Assembly: GCA_947629565.1 (NCBI GenBank)
Contig: CANREG010000011.1
Span: 1 to 57,373 of the forward strand
Direction: 5' to 3'
DNA from: an uncultured Lachnospiraceae bacterium
GTDB lineage: Bacteria > Bacillota > Clostridia > Lachnospirales > Lachnospiraceae
DNA: 57,373 nucleotides
Shown here: one piece after another, positions 12,652 to 19,377 of the stretch
Layout: each line of letters begins with the position of its first letter
Position numbering within the stretch: the first letter of the stretch is position 1
Translations under genes and position numbers: made by a program
Notes under the pieces: model-generated
Told to the model about the DNA's origin: nothing
The model's input: the letters and a program-made list of their open reading frames with translations, nothing else
Databases searched by the model: none

Positions 12652-13116
12652 TTATATTTCTTTTAATATTTCTTTTTTCTTTTTCTTCTTTAGACTGCCG
12701 AACATACTTCCTGCAATCATGCGATGGCCATACAGTACCGTATTGGCGTCGGTAAACTTCTTATTGTTATGTTTGTTCATGAAAATAGCTCCAGCCTCTT
12801 GATAATTTCCTCTCCAATCTTTCTTCAAATAGGTCTGGTTACTTTTGCCCCGTACAATCGGATAGTTGATGCGAGACGGTTCCTCAAACCGTATCCAGCC
12901 TACCACATCGGGATTTATCCGCCGTAGGGCGTCCCAGTCAAAGTCCTCATCGGATTCTTCATACTGTGTAAGGTCTTGCTCCATATCCCGAATGAACAAT
13001 TCTTTTTTGACTTCTGTTCCACCCAAGTAGGCGACAATCCCAATGAAAATCATCATCAGCAGTCCCAACAAGGCAGAAATTCCGTTTTGTTTCTTTTTCT
13101 TTTTTGCTGTTTTCAC
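12652..13116 (-). pseudogene. Class B sortase, C-terminally truncated
   Basis: 154 residues against about 230-250 for class B sortases. An N-terminal signal-anchor (GLLMMIFIGIVAYLGG, about 17-32) is followed by the early catalytic-domain pattern VVGWIRFEEPSRINYPIVRG and NTVLYGHRM, which holds the catalytic histidine. The reading then degenerates at GSLKKKKKKEILKEI and stops. The catalytic cysteine (TLSTC-type) and arginine are absent, so it should be inactive as a transpeptidase. The break coincides with a 90-base polypurine tract (minus strand) that runs to the stop of the convergent ATPase gene. The start is GTG after AAAGGAG. Confidence 0.75.
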
Positions 13117-13966: not shown

Positions 13967-14206
13967 TTACCACCAGTGCTTTGTCGCACTTCTATAATAA
14001 CAACTGTTTGCAGCGTCAACCCAGCCGTTGCAAATCTCTTTTGCAACATAGAAGGATAATGCTACTACCACTGCTAACAAGCCCAGGGATACAACCAAAC
14101 CGACTTTCAAAGCAATAATCACAACTTTCAAAGCCTTTTCACCTGTGTTTAATGTAGACCATTTGCTGCTATTTACTTTTGCGATTTTACGAAATACCTC
14201 TAACAT
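13967..14206 (-). CDS. Small membrane protein of the Clp-FtsH/RNase H cluster
   Basis: 79 residues (82 if the GTG three codons earlier is used). The N-terminus is soluble and basic, one long hydrophobic segment spans about 30-57 (VVIIALKVGLVVSLGLLAVV and onward), and a short tail contains a cysteine pair and ends in aromatic residues. No family is recognised. It follows the 1203-residue AAA protein by about 60 bases on the same strand, so it is probably in the same operon. It could serve as membrane anchor, substrate or toxin-like effector for the FtsH-type protease; this is inference from position only. AGGGTGAG before the ATG leaves the exact start open. Confidence 0.6.
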   Translation of the reverse strand: MLEVFRKIAKVNSSKWSTLNTGEKALKVVIIALKVGLVVSLGLLAVVVALSFYVAKEICNGWVDAANSCYYRSATKHWW

Positions 14207-14269
14207 TGTACTCACCCTTTCTTTGATATTATCTTGTATTTCTATGAATCTCCAGAGGACTTTTCCTTC

Positions 14270-17200
14270 TTACTCCTCTGCTTTCATCATTTTTTCAAAT
14301 TGCTCTCCTGTCAACCAGCTCTCCCGCATCAAGACAGGCACAATCTTTTGGATTTTATCTTTTCCCTCTTCAATCATTTTTATTGCGTTTTTCATCTCAT
14401 CATTCAGGATTTCATTGACTCTACCCACATATTTTTCAGCCAGCGCTGACTGCAATATCTCGTCCCTGCTGAGGGCAATTAACTGATTGTCTTCCATTCC
14501 ATATGCGCACACGATCTGAAATGCCCAATAGGTAGCACACTGCAAATCACTTCTTGCCCCTGTGTTGAGTGATTGCGCCTTGCCATAGAACACTTCCTCC
14601 GCTGCTCTTCCAGCCAAAAAAATTCTGATTTTTGCAAGAAGTTGTTCTTTCGTCGAGTATGTAACATTCTCGGACACAGGCAATCCCGTATACCCTCCGA
14701 AATTTCCCCTGGACTCAATCGTGATATACGTAGGCTTACCTATTCCGCTAATATAGGTCACATACGCATGCCCGAGTTCGTGGACAGCTGTCGACTCGCA
14801 GGTTTCCTCTGTATGCTCTCTCTTTTCACCATGATTGTATTCCTCAAGAGCAGTTATCAAATCCGCATCCTCCATCACCCGTAACTGTCTTGCAGCATTA
14901 CGGAATGCGATTTCAAACACATTCTGAAGAATTGCAAGGCTCTGCCCCGGCGTCCTCTTTGCGATATGGTTCACTGTCTCTTCCGAAACAGTCGTAATCT
15001 TCTTATCATCAAGCATCTTACGAATATATTTTCCGCGTTCGCTTTCTTTCGGAATGTCCACACGAATCTTATTGTCAAATCGCCTGAGCAGCGCCTCATC
15101 CAGCAGAGCAATCCCACCGCTTTCCCTGTCGACTCCATAGTTTGTAGCTGCCAGAACAAAAACCGGCTTATTGCTTCCAGTATCATAAAAACCGTCCATC
15201 TGTTCCAACAGGGCGTTCAGCATACTTTCTGTTGAAGCAGTAAATGACGAACCGGTTCTCGCCTTGCCGATTGCATCAATTTCATCAATGAATATAATGG
15301 ACGGTGCATATTTCTTCGCCCTTACAAATAACTGCTTGATAGCAAATATACCCTTGCTTACAAACTCTGCGGCGCTAGTCGGGAAAAAGGTCGCATCTGA
15401 TTCGCCTGCCATGGCTCTGGCAAGCATCGTCTTTCCGGTTCCCGGGGAGCCATAGAGAAGAATCCCTTTTGGCGGCTTAGCACCGTTCAAGCGAAACTTT
15501 CTCGGGTTCTTCAAATACTGCACAAAGTACCTAAGTTCATCCTTTGCTTTTTCTGCCCCGATGACATCATCAAATTTGGTATCCGGTCGTTCTTTCTCAG
15601 CCAGAAGCGAAGACTTATCCTCAGCCTCCACTGCCCTTTCCAGTTTAAAATCACAAAAAACAACTTTTCCTGTATTGGTTTTTTCATCAAATTCCTGTCG
15701 GGTTTCATATGTCAAAACCTGACTCTTCGCTGTCAATGTGTTCATTACCTGACAGCAGCATATGTTCTTATAAATCTGCTCCAACTGGCTGGTAAGGCAT
15801 TGCACATCTATCAATCCTCTGGCGCCTTTTTCCATAAGAATTTTCTTTTCTTTCGACGTATATTCACGTGCACGTCCTCCGTTCAAAATATACACAGGAA
15901 TTTCTTTATTTTCCTCTCGAAGTTTCAAAAAGACTTTTCGGCCAATCGTTTCGGCATCTGCAAAATTCAACTCTTTTTCCACATTTTTAAGACCATATGT
16001 ATAATCAATAACTGCAAAAAGGACGTTCTTCTCTCCGTTGATTATTTTCATATACTCTTCGAAATCTGTAGTCGTTTCCACAGATACATTATTTTCTTCC
16101 AACTGTTTAATTGGCTTATGTTTCACCGTTCCAAAAACAGGAATTACGCAGTCCCGCTCTCCCAGATAAAAGTCCCTGATTTCTTCTTTGGTTCCGTCAA
16201 GATTGCATTTCCAGTCGATTTTTTTCCCCGTACCGTTTTCATCTAATATCTGCTTATCCTCCAACAGTCCCAAAAACTTATGCAATTCCCTGCTGATTAA
16301 CTTATCTGCGCTTTGGGAAGCATTTCTGGCATCTGCGCTTCCGCCCATGGAATATAATATGGTTTTGGCAATGTATTCCATTCCCTGCTTATGCTTCAAC
16401 GTATAGCCGTAATTTTTCTTCAGGGCCTTGAAACATTTTTTAATATCAGCCTGCACCAGTTCAAGAATTGCATCTGCTCTTAAATGATTTAGCATGATAA
16501 CCGTATAAGAAGACAGCCTTGAAAGTATTTCCGGAGGAAAATAAGGCTTCCCCATGTCATTTGTATCCTTTTTAAGCGCATCAATCACCACTTTATCCGG
16601 AAGCAGAGTTAGATTTTCATCCTGTGCATTATCATAAAGCTGTCTGCCTGCATTGGTCGTAAAGAAAATAATAGTATCCTTGAACGCTACCTTTCCTCCC
16701 TTTTCTTTATCTTCGCAGAACCCGGCATCTAAAATCTGTAAAAACACTTTTATAACATTGGCATGTGCTTTTTCTATTTCATCAAACAAAAGCACACATT
16801 TTGGATTTTCAAGCACAAACTGGGTAAGCTTGCCTGGGGTGGGACCCCCCTGCCATGACTTGTTAAAACCAAGCAATTCTTCTATGCGTTCATGAAAAAC
16901 ATATTCTGACATATCAAACCGTTTAAAAGGTAACTGCAATTTGGCAGCAAACTGCTGCGCCATAAAAGTCTTTCCCACGCCCGGAGGTCCTGCCAGAAAA
17001 TATACATTTCTCGGTCTGGTTCTGTATGGCGATGTATGCGCCTTCCATTCTGCATTGAAATAGGCTTCACTGAGTTTCTCAATAGCCGCATCCTGTCCAA
17101 AAATCCGTTGCTTCAGTTCCGTTTCAATAGCTCCGGTCTGCATATAAATCTGATTAAAGGAAAGTTTCTCTTCCTTAATCCAATCCTCGCTTAATTCCGG

Positions 17201-17881
17201 CTCCGGGTATTCCATCAGCATCAAGTTTACAAATCCGTTAACGGCATCTGTCTTATATCCTAAAACATTGTCTGCCTTTTGGTCCCGGTAAATAGCCGTT
17301 AATTTGACTAGATTAACATCCCGTTCACAGCGATACAACTGTTCCCTCAGTTTTTTAGCGGCAATCTTTTTTTCAGTTTGTTCGAATGAATTTTTGATAA
17401 TCCTCCTATATTCATCCATATCTTTTGCCCATTTCCAATATCCTGCTGGTGCAACGGGCTTTATATCTTCAGAGATAAACTTTTCATATTCATTATCTTC
17501 TTCCTCCTCCTCTTCTTCCTCCTCTTCTTCCTCCTCTTCTTCCTCTTCTTCCAGCTTGTAAACTGACTCTGCCTTTTCCGAAACGGATTCATTAACGAAA
17601 GGCAAAAAGCCATCTTCCCGCCAAGTCGTAACCTTCAAATAATCGTCTGTACTCTCCCCCTGATACACCAAATTTCCTTTTCCCAGGTATTCTTCCGCTT
17701 CTTTTATGGCATACCGCAAGCTGCCGACTACATCTTGCGGCTCCTCCTCAAGCTCAGTCCAATATTTGAAGCTGATATAGGTTGCATGATGATACCCTTT
17801 TGTCTGCTCCTCACATTTCTTCCATTCATCAAAAATTCCTGTCGTTCTTCCAATTCGTACCGCATAAATAGATTTCTTCAA
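14270..17881 (-). CDS. Hybrid-binding-domain / Clp AAA+ / FtsH AAA+ / M41 protease fusion
   Basis: 1203 residues, with domains in this order. Residues 4-38: an RNase H1-type hybrid-binding (viroplasmin, Cauli_VI) domain, visible as YAVRIGRTTGIF, W20, C23, Q26 and ATYISF. Residues 111-128: eighteen glutamates. About 255-530: a Clp-type AAA+ module with Walker A GPPGVGKT at 298-305 and Walker B VLLFDE at 363-368. About 580-705: a receiver-like alpha/beta region. About 770-1000: an FtsH-type AAA+ module with GSPGTGKT at 811-818, FIDEID at 864-869 and RRFD near 936. About 1020-1195: an M41 zinc protease with HELGH at 1034-1038 and third ligand Asp1112. No membrane helix precedes the FtsH part, unlike true FtsH. 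The start is TTG after AGGAGG. The gene follows the RNase HI-like gene by 80 bases. I know of no named system with this architecture; function (unfolding and proteolysis near RNA:DNA hybrids) is inferred. Confidence 0.9.
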   Translation of the reverse strand: MKKSIYAVRIGRTTGIFDEWKKCEEQTKGYHHATYISFKYWTELEEEPQDVVGSLRYAIKEAEEYLGKGNLVYQGESTDDYLKVTTWREDGFLPFVNESVSEKAESVYKLEEEEEEEEEEEEEEEEEEDNEYEKFISEDIKPVAPAGYWKWAKDMDEYRRIIKNSFEQTEKKIAAKKLREQLYRCERDVNLVKLTAIYRDQKADNVLGYKTDAVNGFVNLMLMEYPEPELSEDWIKEEKLSFNQIYMQTGAIETELKQRIFGQDAAIEKLSEAYFNAEWKAHTSPYRTRPRNVYFLAGPPGVGKTFMAQQFAAKLQLPFKRFDMSEYVFHERIEELLGFNKSWQGGPTPGKLTQFVLENPKCVLLFDEIEKAHANVIKVFLQILDAGFCEDKEKGGKVAFKDTIIFFTTNAGRQLYDNAQDENLTLLPDKVVIDALKKDTNDMGKPYFPPEILSRLSSYTVIMLNHLRADAILELVQADIKKCFKALKKNYGYTLKHKQGMEYIAKTILYSMGGSADARNASQSADKLISRELHKFLGLLEDKQILDENGTGKKIDWKCNLDGTKEEIRDFYLGERDCVIPVFGTVKHKPIKQLEENNVSVETTTDFEEYMKIINGEKNVLFAVIDYTYGLKNVEKELNFADAETIGRKVFLKLREENKEIPVYILNGGRAREYTSKEKKILMEKGARGLIDVQCLTSQLEQIYKNICCCQVMNTLTAKSQVLTYETRQEFDEKTNTGKVVFCDFKLERAVEAEDKSSLLAEKERPDTKFDDVIGAEKAKDELRYFVQYLKNPRKFRLNGAKPPKGILLYGSPGTGKTMLARAMAGESDATFFPTSAAEFVSKGIFAIKQLFVRAKKYAPSIIFIDEIDAIGKARTGSSFTASTESMLNALLEQMDGFYDTGSNKPVFVLAATNYGVDRESGGIALLDEALLRRFDNKIRVDIPKESERGKYIRKMLDDKKITTVSEETVNHIAKRTPGQSLAILQNVFEIAFRNAARQLRVMEDADLITALEEYNHGEKREHTEETCESTAVHELGHAYVTYISGIGKPTYITIESRGNFGGYTGLPVSENVTYSTKEQLLAKIRIFLAGRAAEEVFYGKAQSLNTGARSDLQCATYWAFQIVCAYGMEDNQLIALSRDEILQSALAEKYVGRVNEILNDEMKNAIKMIEEGKDKIQKIVPVLMRESWLTGEQFEKMMKAEE

Positions 17882-17961
17882 CTGATTGTCCTCCTATAGC
17901 TTGCACCTCATGTGTTTCAAAAAACATTCATTAGTAAGATTATTTTCTGAATGCCCATATA

Positions 17962-19134
17962 TTACCCCTCAACACATTTCTCTAAGCTGTCGCTCATTCC
18001 AACGCCCAGTTTAGCAAGTCCATCTGCAAGAACATTGCCGGGGTTATAATCTTTTTTAACACTATGCGACGTTTTTTGTATGCTTTGAATTTGAATTTTC
18101 ATTACTTCTTTTTTTTCGCCGTCCCCTCGATTTCCTGTTCTCATATTATATATATACTGAGCGACTATCAGAGTAATCGGAGCTTTTCCCAATCCGTAAG
18201 AAGCCCATTTAATTTCATCGCAGTCATAAACAATTGTAAGTTTTGACAAGTGCAATGTTTCATAAGCATATTTAATCGCTTCCATGCATGCCGCCACCTC
18301 ACCAATAATATTCCTGCTCATTTTGATGTCTTTGACTTGTTTGACTTCTTCGACTTTGTCTTTTTTTATCTCCTCGGGAATCAAAGCAATCAAACCATTC
18401 ATCAGCCTCTCAATTTGAAGCTCGTTTGTACCCAAAGAAAACATCTGTATATCTTCTGGATTTTCACCACAAACAAAAGCAACGCCTAAACCAATGGAAT
18501 CTCCCCTATAACTACCATCAACATACGCCACTCCTTCACCCTGTTCCCATTTCCTGCCTTTGTGCTGCTCACAAATTTTCGATTTCAACGAATCTATAGT
18601 AGGACCTGATTCAGTAATAGAATGTTTAGACAATTTTTCATCCTCGTTAACATATGCATTAAATATAGGGCGGATAATCTCTTTTAAATTGTCCATTAAA
18701 CGGTCCCTTGTCCTCGACGTGCTATATAGGACATTGCCATTTAATATGCTGAGTTCATCGTCCCCATATATAGCTATACATATAGTCCTATCTGCTTTAG
18801 TTTTGTCATATATATATTCCCTTACTTTTTCAATGCAGTACTCCTGACAGCCAGGACAAACTTCCTCATATGATTTTTTTCTCTCTTCCTTTTTACAATT
18901 TCCATAATCCCAATTGTGATATTTTCTGTATCTTATTTCTTCTCCATATTCTGTTTGGTATGAGCCTGTTATTTTAGGCAATTTACCTTTTATATCTTTT
19001 ATCGCTTCTGTTTCTTCCTCATCTTCTATCATTATATAATATTTTTCTTTTTTATTAGCGTTTTCCGCCGTCCCCACATTCTTTGATAATCCCTGTCCTT
19101 CTTCCTTTTTGTCCTGTTTAAACATTTTATCCAT
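17962..19134 (-). CDS. RNase HI-like protein lacking a hybrid-binding domain
   Basis: 390 residues from an ATG with AGGAGG seven bases upstream; a longer reading adds 26 residues but begins inside the palindrome at 19187-19212. The C-terminal 170 residues have the RNase HI fold with the four acidic residues: Asp206 in AYVDGSY, Glu279 in IIGEVAACMEA, Asp304 in IVYDCDEI, and Asp371 in NVLADGLAKLG. The IVYDCDEIKWA pattern is that of bacterial RNase HI proteins that normally carry an N-terminal viroplasmin hybrid-binding domain. Here that domain is missing and is found on the next gene instead. The N-terminal 200 residues are charged, with a CPGCQEYC cluster near 93-100, and match nothing I know. 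It should cut RNA in RNA:DNA hybrids. Confidence 0.82.
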   Translation of the reverse strand: MDKMFKQDKKEEGQGLSKNVGTAENANKKEKYYIMIEDEEETEAIKDIKGKLPKITGSYQTEYGEEIRYRKYHNWDYGNCKKEERKKSYEEVCPGCQEYCIEKVREYIYDKTKADRTICIAIYGDDELSILNGNVLYSTSRTRDRLMDNLKEIIRPIFNAYVNEDEKLSKHSITESGPTIDSLKSKICEQHKGRKWEQGEGVAYVDGSYRGDSIGLGVAFVCGENPEDIQMFSLGTNELQIERLMNGLIALIPEEIKKDKVEEVKQVKDIKMSRNIIGEVAACMEAIKYAYETLHLSKLTIVYDCDEIKWASYGLGKAPITLIVAQYIYNMRTGNRGDGEKKEVMKIQIQSIQKTSHSVKKDYNPGNVLADGLAKLGVGMSDSLEKCVEG

Positions 19135-19186: not shown

Positions 19187-19212
19187 GTATCAAAATGTGT
19201 ACTTTTTGACAT
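19187..19212. promoter_or_regulatory. 26-bp imperfect palindrome upstream of the RNase HI-like gene
   Basis: Arms GTATCAAAATGT and ACTTTTTGACAT around a central GT. It matches the perfect palindrome at 19352-19377 with three arm differences and is a second binding site for the same protein, either the serine recombinase or a repressor. It lies about 50 bases before the RNase HI-like start. Confidence 0.6.
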
Positions 19213-19351: not shown

Positions 19352-19377
19352 GTGTCAAAAAGTACACTTTTTGACAC
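19352..19377. promoter_or_regulatory. 26-bp perfect palindrome between resolvase and RNase HI-like gene
   Basis: Perfect 12-bp arms GTGTCAAAAAGT and ACTTTTTGACAC flank a central AC. Outer TGTC/GACA ends with a two-base centre are what serine resolvase subsites look like, and the resolvase gene ends eight bases away. A copy lies 165 bases further at 19187-19212. An operator for the RNase HI-like operon is the alternative. Confidence 0.65.

What the first reader, a model, noticed from the sequence alone, without database searches (positions are those of the whole stretch)
13967..19134. Split RNase H / hybrid-binding AAA+ protease system
Seen: an RNase HI-like protein with all four acidic catalytic residues but no hybrid-binding domain, followed on the same strand by a 1203-residue protein that begins with that very domain (YAVRIGRTTGIF, W, C, Q, ATYISF). 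This protein continues as Clp-type AAA+, receiver-like region, FtsH-type AAA+ and M41 protease with HELGH. Known: in bacterial RNase HI the viroplasmin-type domain is normally fused to the nuclease and binds RNA:DNA hybrids. Inference: the two proteins act as one machine in which hybrid recognition recruits an unfoldase-protease, and RNase H removes the RNA. Possible targets are R-loops, replication primers, or reverse-transcribed or phage intermediates. A small membrane protein and a serine resolvase flank it, in an AT-rich island.
Basis: partly seen in the sequence, partly recalled or inferred. Interest (0 to 1): 0.93.

Follow-up and report, generated by a model that had tools for sequence, protein, structure and literature searches.

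The report
Hybrid-binding protease paired with RNase H
Some gut bacteria carry a large protein-shredding machine that begins with a module for gripping RNA:DNA hybrids and is encoded beside, and in one relative fused to, an enzyme that destroys the RNA of such hybrids; this suggests an undescribed system for clearing proteins and RNA from hybrids, but no function has been tested.

Summary
The 1203-aa protein is an RNase H1-type hybrid-binding domain (HBD; PF01693, 1.7e-11) + ClpA/B-type AAA + receiver-like region + FtsH AAA + M41 protease. The gene before it has an RNase HI fold and all four acidic catalytic residues. Relatives make the case stronger. Those with an HBD have an RNase H beside or fused to them in 12 of 14 informative loci; those without have one in 0 of 19. 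The partner is not one gene: HBD-type RNase HI, short RNase HI, extended RNase HI or RNase HII, with 6 changes of kind on the tree. In L079, from the window's genus, one 1548-aa ORF runs HBD–Clp–FtsH/M41–RNase HI. RNA:DNA hybrid processing is thus very likely the shared job. That the HBD brings the protease to hybrids is inferred; mobile-element defence is a weaker inference. 'Split RNase H' is the wrong picture: some partner RNases keep their own HBD. The membrane protein and resolvase are not conserved partners. Exceptions: L030, L094. I found no description of this combination in the searched open-access library.

The parts
17962..19134 (-). RNase HI-fold protein, 390 aa (ORF open from 19212); D/E/D/D catalytic set intact; N-terminal about 180 aa of unknown role, possibly a degenerate HBD
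   Evidence: alignment A2 invariant columns; Foldseek to RNase H1 structures; no Pfam RNase_H hit
14270..17881 (-). HBD-Clp-receiver-FtsH-M41 protein, 1203 aa
17675..17881 (-). RNase H1-type hybrid-binding domain (aa 1-69); Y6 and W20 invariant in 18 aligned copies
   Evidence: Pfam PF01693 1.7e-11; PDB 1QHK/3BSU; alignment A4; model
16472..17161 (-). ClpA/B D2-type AAA+ module (aa 241-470) with Walker A GPPGVGKT and Walker B
   Evidence: Foldseek to ClpA/ClpB/ClpC
15728..16150 (-). receiver-like alpha/beta region between the two AAA modules (about aa 578-718)
   Evidence: alternating strands and helices in the model; weak profile match to response regulators
14822..15616 (-). FtsH-type AAA+ module (aa 756-1020); the segment after Walker A that holds the pore loop is shorter than in some relatives
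14291..14812 (-). M41 metalloprotease domain (aa 1024-1197), HELGH at 14768-14782
13967..14206 (-). small one-helix membrane protein downstream; clusters with nothing outside the window's own species, so probably not part of the conserved system
   Evidence: hydropathy 2.7 over 19 residues; clustering of neighbours

Best explanation
It is a hybrid-targeted protease-nuclease pair. The HBD docks a soluble two-ring AAA+ protease (Clp-type ring + FtsH-type ring + M41 chamber) on RNA:DNA hybrids; the rings pull off, unfold and degrade a protein held there (for example a stalled polymerase, a primer- or guide-bound protein, or a reverse transcriptase), while the partner RNase H cuts the RNA strand so the hybrid is dismantled. 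Shown: domain make-up, intact active-site motifs, recurrent linkage of HBD-bearing proteases to RNase H of several kinds, and one natural fusion. Inferred: hybrid binding by this HBD, recruitment of the protease, the substrate. Weaker inference: because the gene is rare, patchy and sometimes beside restriction genes, it may serve defence against mobile elements rather than housekeeping.
For: HBD in every member of one well-supported clade (100/100) whose N-terminus is present (L022 is cut). RNase H beside 11 of 12 informative HBD loci of the first scan and in 0 of 16 HBD-less loci; in 8 of the 11 it is on the same strand within 81 bases, called ORFs overlapping by 8-13 bases in L023, L027 and L048. 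With loci found later, 12 of 14 against 0 of 19 (Fisher 2.6e-7, rows not independent). Counting only RNase H found by Pfam models at E <= 0.001, 8 of 12 HBD genomes have one close to the large gene where 0.12 were expected (entered by hand; three of the eight are below Pfam's curated cut-off). Partners belong to RNase HI (PF00075) and RNase HII (PF01351) families; 6 changes of kind on the best tree, 2 of them between HI and HII. L079: one ORF with Cauli_VI 3e-15, AAA_2, AAA, M41, RNase_H 3.8e-35; the only matches of its fused RNase among the ORFs held are the free RNases of L023 and L029 (40 and 43% identity). Its sister L078 lacks both the HBD on the protease and an RNase H. L080 pairs an HBD-RNase with an FtsH-M41 protein without a Clp ring. 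Defence lean: restriction genes beside L027 and L078; DUF1848, which PADLOC links to defence reverse transcriptases, in L024, the same family in L029 and L030.
Against: L030 and L094 have an HBD-bearing protease and no RNase H in the roughly 6-7 kb held on each side. On independent branches there are only 2 pairs, too few for a test. The window's HBD lacks the paired basic residues of several relatives (FRRF there, YISF here), so its hybrid affinity is uncertain. No protease activity is shown, and an HBD can also bind a protein (human HBD and P32, passages of PMC3750045) or, recalled, double-stranded RNA. The defence reading is weak: PADLOC gives the large protein only generic AAA-type matches and the RNase none, phage and plasmid collections hold no match to the HBD-helical part of L021, and L021 lies, by eye, among housekeeping-like genes.
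Confidence: 0.6

Rival explanations
1. The RNase H is the client or regulated partner, not a co-effector: HBDs on protease and RNase bind the same hybrid or each other, and the protease controls how much RNase H stays on the nucleic acid.
For: In four loci the partner RNase also has an HBD (L021, L026, L027, L048); small free HBD proteins occur in L026, L027, L048, as adaptors might; the human HBD can bind a protein, P32 (passages).
Against: Partners of different families (RNase HI without a recognised HBD, RNase HII) fill the same place, and in L079 the RNase is fused to the protease C-terminus, which is odd for a substrate.
Confidence: 0.17
2. [quoted passage not shown] RNase H is a secondary helper.
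For: ClpK and FtsH genes lie together on plasmids (passages of PMC8290217); HBD-less relatives have YbjN-like neighbours in 7 of 16 loci and no RNase H.
Against: Does not explain recurrent RNase H recruitment limited to HBD-bearing forms or the HBD-protease-RNase fusion.
Confidence: 0.15
3. Hitchhiking: genes of a variable island that sit together without working together.
For: Loci are patchy (3 of 299 family genomes; 5 of 26 genus genomes) and some lie beside restriction or other accessory genes.
Against: Linkage is far above the rate expected from RNase H gene number (8 seen, 0.12 expected), keeps to HBD-bearing forms, survives exchange of the RNase for another family, and is a fusion in L079.
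Confidence: 0.04

Closest known systems
RNase H1 with N-terminal HBD (PF01693 + PF00075), e.g. Bacillus halodurans RNase HI
   Same: Same HBD family; the partner nuclease in four loci has exactly this layout; the HBD binds hybrids without sequence preference and raises activity and processivity (stated in PMC3526281, passages seen).
   Different: Here the HBD heads a 1190-1614-aa AAA+ protease; the nuclease is a separate gene or sits at the far C-terminus.
FtsH (M41 AAA+ protease)
   Same: AAA + M41 order, HExxH; best NCBIfam match TIGR01241 over aa 757-1194.
   Different: 315.6 bits against a cut-off of 600; no membrane-helix-like stretch; fused behind a Clp ring and an HBD.
ClpA/ClpB/ClpC Hsp100 unfoldases
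   Same: First AAA module is of the ClpA/B D2 type.
   Different: One Clp module only, linked to its own FtsH/M41 half instead of docking on ClpP (ClpP docking recalled).
[quoted passage not shown]
   Same: A Clp unfoldase and an FtsH encoded close together.
   Different: Separate genes; no HBD or RNase H mentioned in the passages seen.
DNA-protein crosslink proteases such as SPRTN/Wss1 (recalled, no call)
   Same: A metalloprotease brought to proteins on nucleic acid by a nucleic-acid-binding part.
   Different: DNA rather than RNA:DNA hybrid, no Clp or FtsH rings, no RNase H partner.

Membership tests
RNase H1 hybrid-binding domain (PF01693) | Sequence match above the curated cut-off | tested here: met
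   44.6 bits against 21
RNase H1 hybrid-binding domain (PF01693) | Three-stranded sheet with two helices (layout recalled) | tested here: met
   E3-10 E15-17 H20-27 E34-40 H55-66, pLDDT about 85 over 1-40; no separate fold search of this domain was run
RNase H1 hybrid-binding domain (PF01693) | Aromatic and basic hybrid-contact residues (roles recalled) | tested here: inconclusive
   Y6 and W20 invariant in 18 copies; paired basic residues present in several relatives, absent in the window
RNase H1 hybrid-binding domain (PF01693) | Binds RNA:DNA hybrid | not testable with these tools
   needs a binding assay
RNase HI | RNase H fold | tested here: met
   Foldseek best matches are RNase H1, TM by target up to 0.78; model pLDDT 43-87 by block in that part
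RNase HI | Catalytic D-E-D-D | tested here: met
   invariant D206, E279, D304, D371
RNase HI | Pfam RNase_H match | tested here: not met
   no match for the window copy; several partners match. Filed as RNase HI-fold, not as a Pfam member
FtsH equivalog (TIGR01241) | Curated score for FtsH | tested here: not met
   315.6 of 600 bits
FtsH equivalog (TIGR01241) | N-terminal membrane anchor | tested here: not met
   highest 19-residue hydropathy 1.0
M41 peptidase | HExxH zinc motif and M41 match | tested here: met
   PF01434 2.1e-24, HELGH
ClpA (TIGR02639) | Curated score for ClpA | tested here: not met
   158.6 of 993 bits
Known anti-phage systems in PADLOC | Match beyond the generic AAA fold | tested here: not met
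   IetA, DolB, TRIP13 and a few other matches, nearly all in the AAA parts, for the large protein; none for the RNase

The most novel reading that the evidence does not exclude
An RNA:DNA-hybrid-activated AAA+ protease: binding of foreign or stuck hybrids (R-loops, primers, reverse-transcribed or guide-loaded intermediates) switches on a Clp-FtsH machine that shreds the bound proteins while its own RNase H, separate or fused, destroys the RNA, forming a mobile-element defence of gut Clostridia.
Probability: 0.35. Interest if true: 0.93.

Novelty: categorically new. Interest (0 to 1): 0.82.

Why it matters
RNA:DNA hybrids are usually handled by nucleases and helicases. A conserved pairing, once a fusion, of hybrid recognition with energy-driven proteolysis would be a new way to deal with hybrids and what is stuck to them, and gives a small, directly testable system (one or two genes). 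It would also offer a reader module that sends an AAA+ protease to a nucleic-acid structure. Each domain is a known family; the claim of novelty is for the combination and rests on text searches of one open-access library.

Tried and rejected
Viral contigs: no relative of the inter-AAA region. Phages: no match to the RNase or to the HBD-helical part of L021. Plasmids: for the large protein no place covered 80% of the query and the 20 listed of 3101 records are Clp/FtsH-type genes; nothing for the HBD-helical part. Empty-site test: in the nearest genome of the genus without the island only the flavin-reductase-like flank gene matched, so mobility of this locus is not shown. The serine resolvase was rejected as a part: its palindromic site occurs only in the window's species among 49 loci held at that time; L027 does hold, by eye, a larger recombinase-like ORF. 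The receiver-like region against stand-alone receivers gave hhalign probability 6: not established by sequence. Structure search of the large model: the 50 rows shown are all Clp-type proteins, so HBD and receiver folds were not searched apart. Literature: no paper held the terms asked for (DUF1848); others (10 of 14 listed) gave listings whose titles and abstract openings did not describe this system. Passages only were seen of PMC3750045, PMC3526281 and PMC8290217.

Rows dropped before counts: L020 and L073 (window's species), L049 (near-copy of L034), L017 and L085 (same as L040), L016 and L083 (same as L048), L074 (same as L030 by its place, judged, not aligned), L022 (contig starts inside the gene, HBD and upstream side unseen), L080, L082, L096, L098 (no Clp ring, no receiver hit, cut, or not a member). 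L042 is among the 16 HBD-less loci although its large ORF was not recovered; it is not among the 19. Four HBD-less loci have little DNA on one side (L043 99 bases, L044 none, L047 596, L045 1104), so absence there is half-tested. Custom profiles behind the 12-of-14 count were built partly from the positives themselves; the Pfam-model count (8 of 12) was not.
Full report
What is there. The window holds, on the minus strand, an RNase HI-like gene (17962-19134), 80 bases, then a 1203-aa gene (14270-17881). The large protein is HBD (PF01693, 1.7e-11) + ClpA/B-type AAA + receiver-like region + FtsH AAA + M41. HELGH and both pairs of Walker motifs are intact. No stretch looks like a membrane helix, so it should be a soluble machine, unlike ordinary FtsH. 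The RNase escapes Pfam and NCBIfam but has the RNase HI fold and the four acidic residues. Its first 176 residues are modelled poorly (mostly pLDDT under 50). A profile comparison aligns the HBD family to the N-terminal part of the RNase alignment as a family, so this copy may hold a decayed HBD; not proven.

The genome keeps ordinary copies. The window's genome has an ordinary 228-aa HBD-RNase HI on another contig and an RNase HII. Of 299 genomes of the family 83 have an HBD match; in the places listed the open frames are 102-572 aa except in the window and G013, where they exceed 1000 aa. So the protease-borne HBD is an addition, not a displaced half of the cell's RNase H.

Relatives. A profile of the region between the two AAA modules (A1) found 30 loci in the collection of 84,980 species genomes; 28 of the 30 record titles name Clostridia or groups within them, the other two 'Bacterium D16-50' and 'Firmicutes'. 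That scan starts from two short peptide patterns and will miss members. Viral contigs gave none. The gene is rare: 3 of 299 family genomes, 6 of 391 class genomes with several faint hits, 5 of 26 genomes of the genus, 10 of 397 family genomes with several faint hits. Two groups appear. One bears the HBD in every copy whose N-terminus is present; the other has no HBD, and none of its 17 genomes has any PF01693 match. In trees the main HBD group is one clade with 100/100 support.

Link with RNase H. In the HBD group an RNase H gene lies beside the large gene in 11 of 12 informative loci (window, L021, L023-L029, L031, L048; not L030), and in 0 of 16 HBD-less loci. In 8 of the 11 it is on the same strand within 81 bases; in L021 a receiver gene lies between (510 bases), in L029 1650 bases, and in L031 it is divergent at 232 bases. 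The RNases are of different kinds: HBD + RNase HI (L021, L026, L027, L048; RNase_H 3.7e-6 to 2e-4), short RNase HI (L023, L029; PF00075 5e-26 to 8e-26), extended forms recognised by alignment only (L025, L028), the window form (40% identical to that of L048), and RNase HII (L024, L031; PF01351 4.5e-17 and 2.9e-12). The catalytic residues are present in the RNase HI partners by alignment or motif, and the RNase HII partners keep GSDE, VVDD and KADS motifs (motif meaning recalled). On the best tree the kind changes 6 times among HBD rows, or 8 with 'none' as a state and the window form apart; between HI and HII it changes twice; several forks are poorly supported. Counting only RNases found by Pfam models at E <= 0.001, 8 of 12 genomes have one close to the large gene where 0.12 is expected; three of these eight are under the curated cut-off.

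New loci as a test. Later searches gave further members, read after the pattern was seen. L079 (G714, same genus) is a single ORF of 1548 aa: HBD, Clp AAA, FtsH AAA, M41 and, after a charged linker, a classical RNase HI (PF00075 3.8e-35). It is far from the main clade on the tree; its sister L078 has neither an HBD on the protease nor an RNase H, though a 193-aa neighbour there begins, by eye, like an HBD without a Pfam match. L094 has an HBD and no RNase H in the 7 kb held on either side: a second exception. L081, L095 and L097 lack both. Totals: 12 of 14 with HBD, 0 of 19 without. L080 pairs an HBD-RNase with an FtsH/M41 protein lacking the Clp ring; left out of the counts. On independent branches only 2 pairs exist, too few for a test.

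Mechanism. Shown: the parts, their intact motifs, their linkage and one fusion. RNase HI and RNase HII share one activity, cutting RNA in RNA:DNA hybrids (established knowledge), and the HBD family binds hybrids (PMC3526281 passages). So the common object is most likely an RNA:DNA hybrid. The simplest reading is that the HBD brings the unfoldase-protease to hybrids, where it removes proteins while the RNase removes RNA. The window's HBD lacks the paired basic residues that several relatives keep, so its affinity needs testing. The cell role is open. Patchy occurrence, restriction genes next to L027 and L078, defence-helicase-like matches beside L095 (an HBD-less member), and DUF1848, which PADLOC ties to defence reverse transcriptases, lean towards defence; L021 among housekeeping-like genes and the lack of phage or plasmid carriage do not.

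Other recurrent neighbours in the HBD group (13 loci, L022 included): a stand-alone receiver protein in 6, a PPP-type phosphatase in 5, DUF1848 in 3, a small HBD protein in 3 (L026, L027, L048) plus a 75-aa piece of its helical part in L030. HBD-less loci have YbjN-like neighbours in 7 of 16, a Card1-like protein in 2 and a PPP-type phosphatase in 1.

Verdict. As a kind of system I found no precedent in the searches made; function is untested.

Noticed in passing
window 19188-19211 and 19353-19376: Two copies (0 and 2 mismatches) of a near-palindromic 24-base sequence TGTCAAAAAGTGTACTTTTTGACA beside the serine recombinase gene (0 expected in 100 shuffles), probable recombination sites; only in this species among the loci then held.
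   Followed up: partly
window 12652-13116: ORF of 154 aa that looks, by eye, like a sortase and ends after a run of lysines (poly-A tract), as if cut short; same length in L020.
   Followed up: no
window about 17480-17545: Run of glutamate codons in the large gene; the protein is four residues longer in the near-identical L020 (1207 against 1203 aa), a possible length-variable repeat.
   Followed up: no
L023 675-10379: Two large HBD proteases of different subtypes flank one short RNase HI and a gene of the PLD-like/DUF5710 kind.
   Followed up: partly
L026 9588-10253, L027 15366-15869, L048 5669-6343: Small free proteins made of the HBD plus the helical region of the large protein, without AAA modules.
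   Followed up: partly
L078 2563-6739: Restriction-modification-type genes (EcoRI-type adenine methylase, C5 cytosine methylase, NOV_C protein) next to an HBD-less Clp-FtsH member.
   Followed up: partly
L032, L033, L034, L038, L040, L041, L046: HBD-less Clp-FtsH fusions with YbjN-like genes nearby, and a Card1-like protein in L038 and L046 (Pfam match in L038 just below cut-off): perhaps a second, separate system type.
   Followed up: no
L027, L030, L048: Large proteins with two FtsH AAA modules in tandem before one M41 domain.
   Followed up: no
L024 11503-12444, L029 5053-6012, L030 4076-5032: DUF1848 protein near HBD proteases; PADLOC names the L024 copy RTasDUF1848 of defence reverse transcriptase systems; I saw no reverse transcriptase nearby but did not search for one.
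   Followed up: partly
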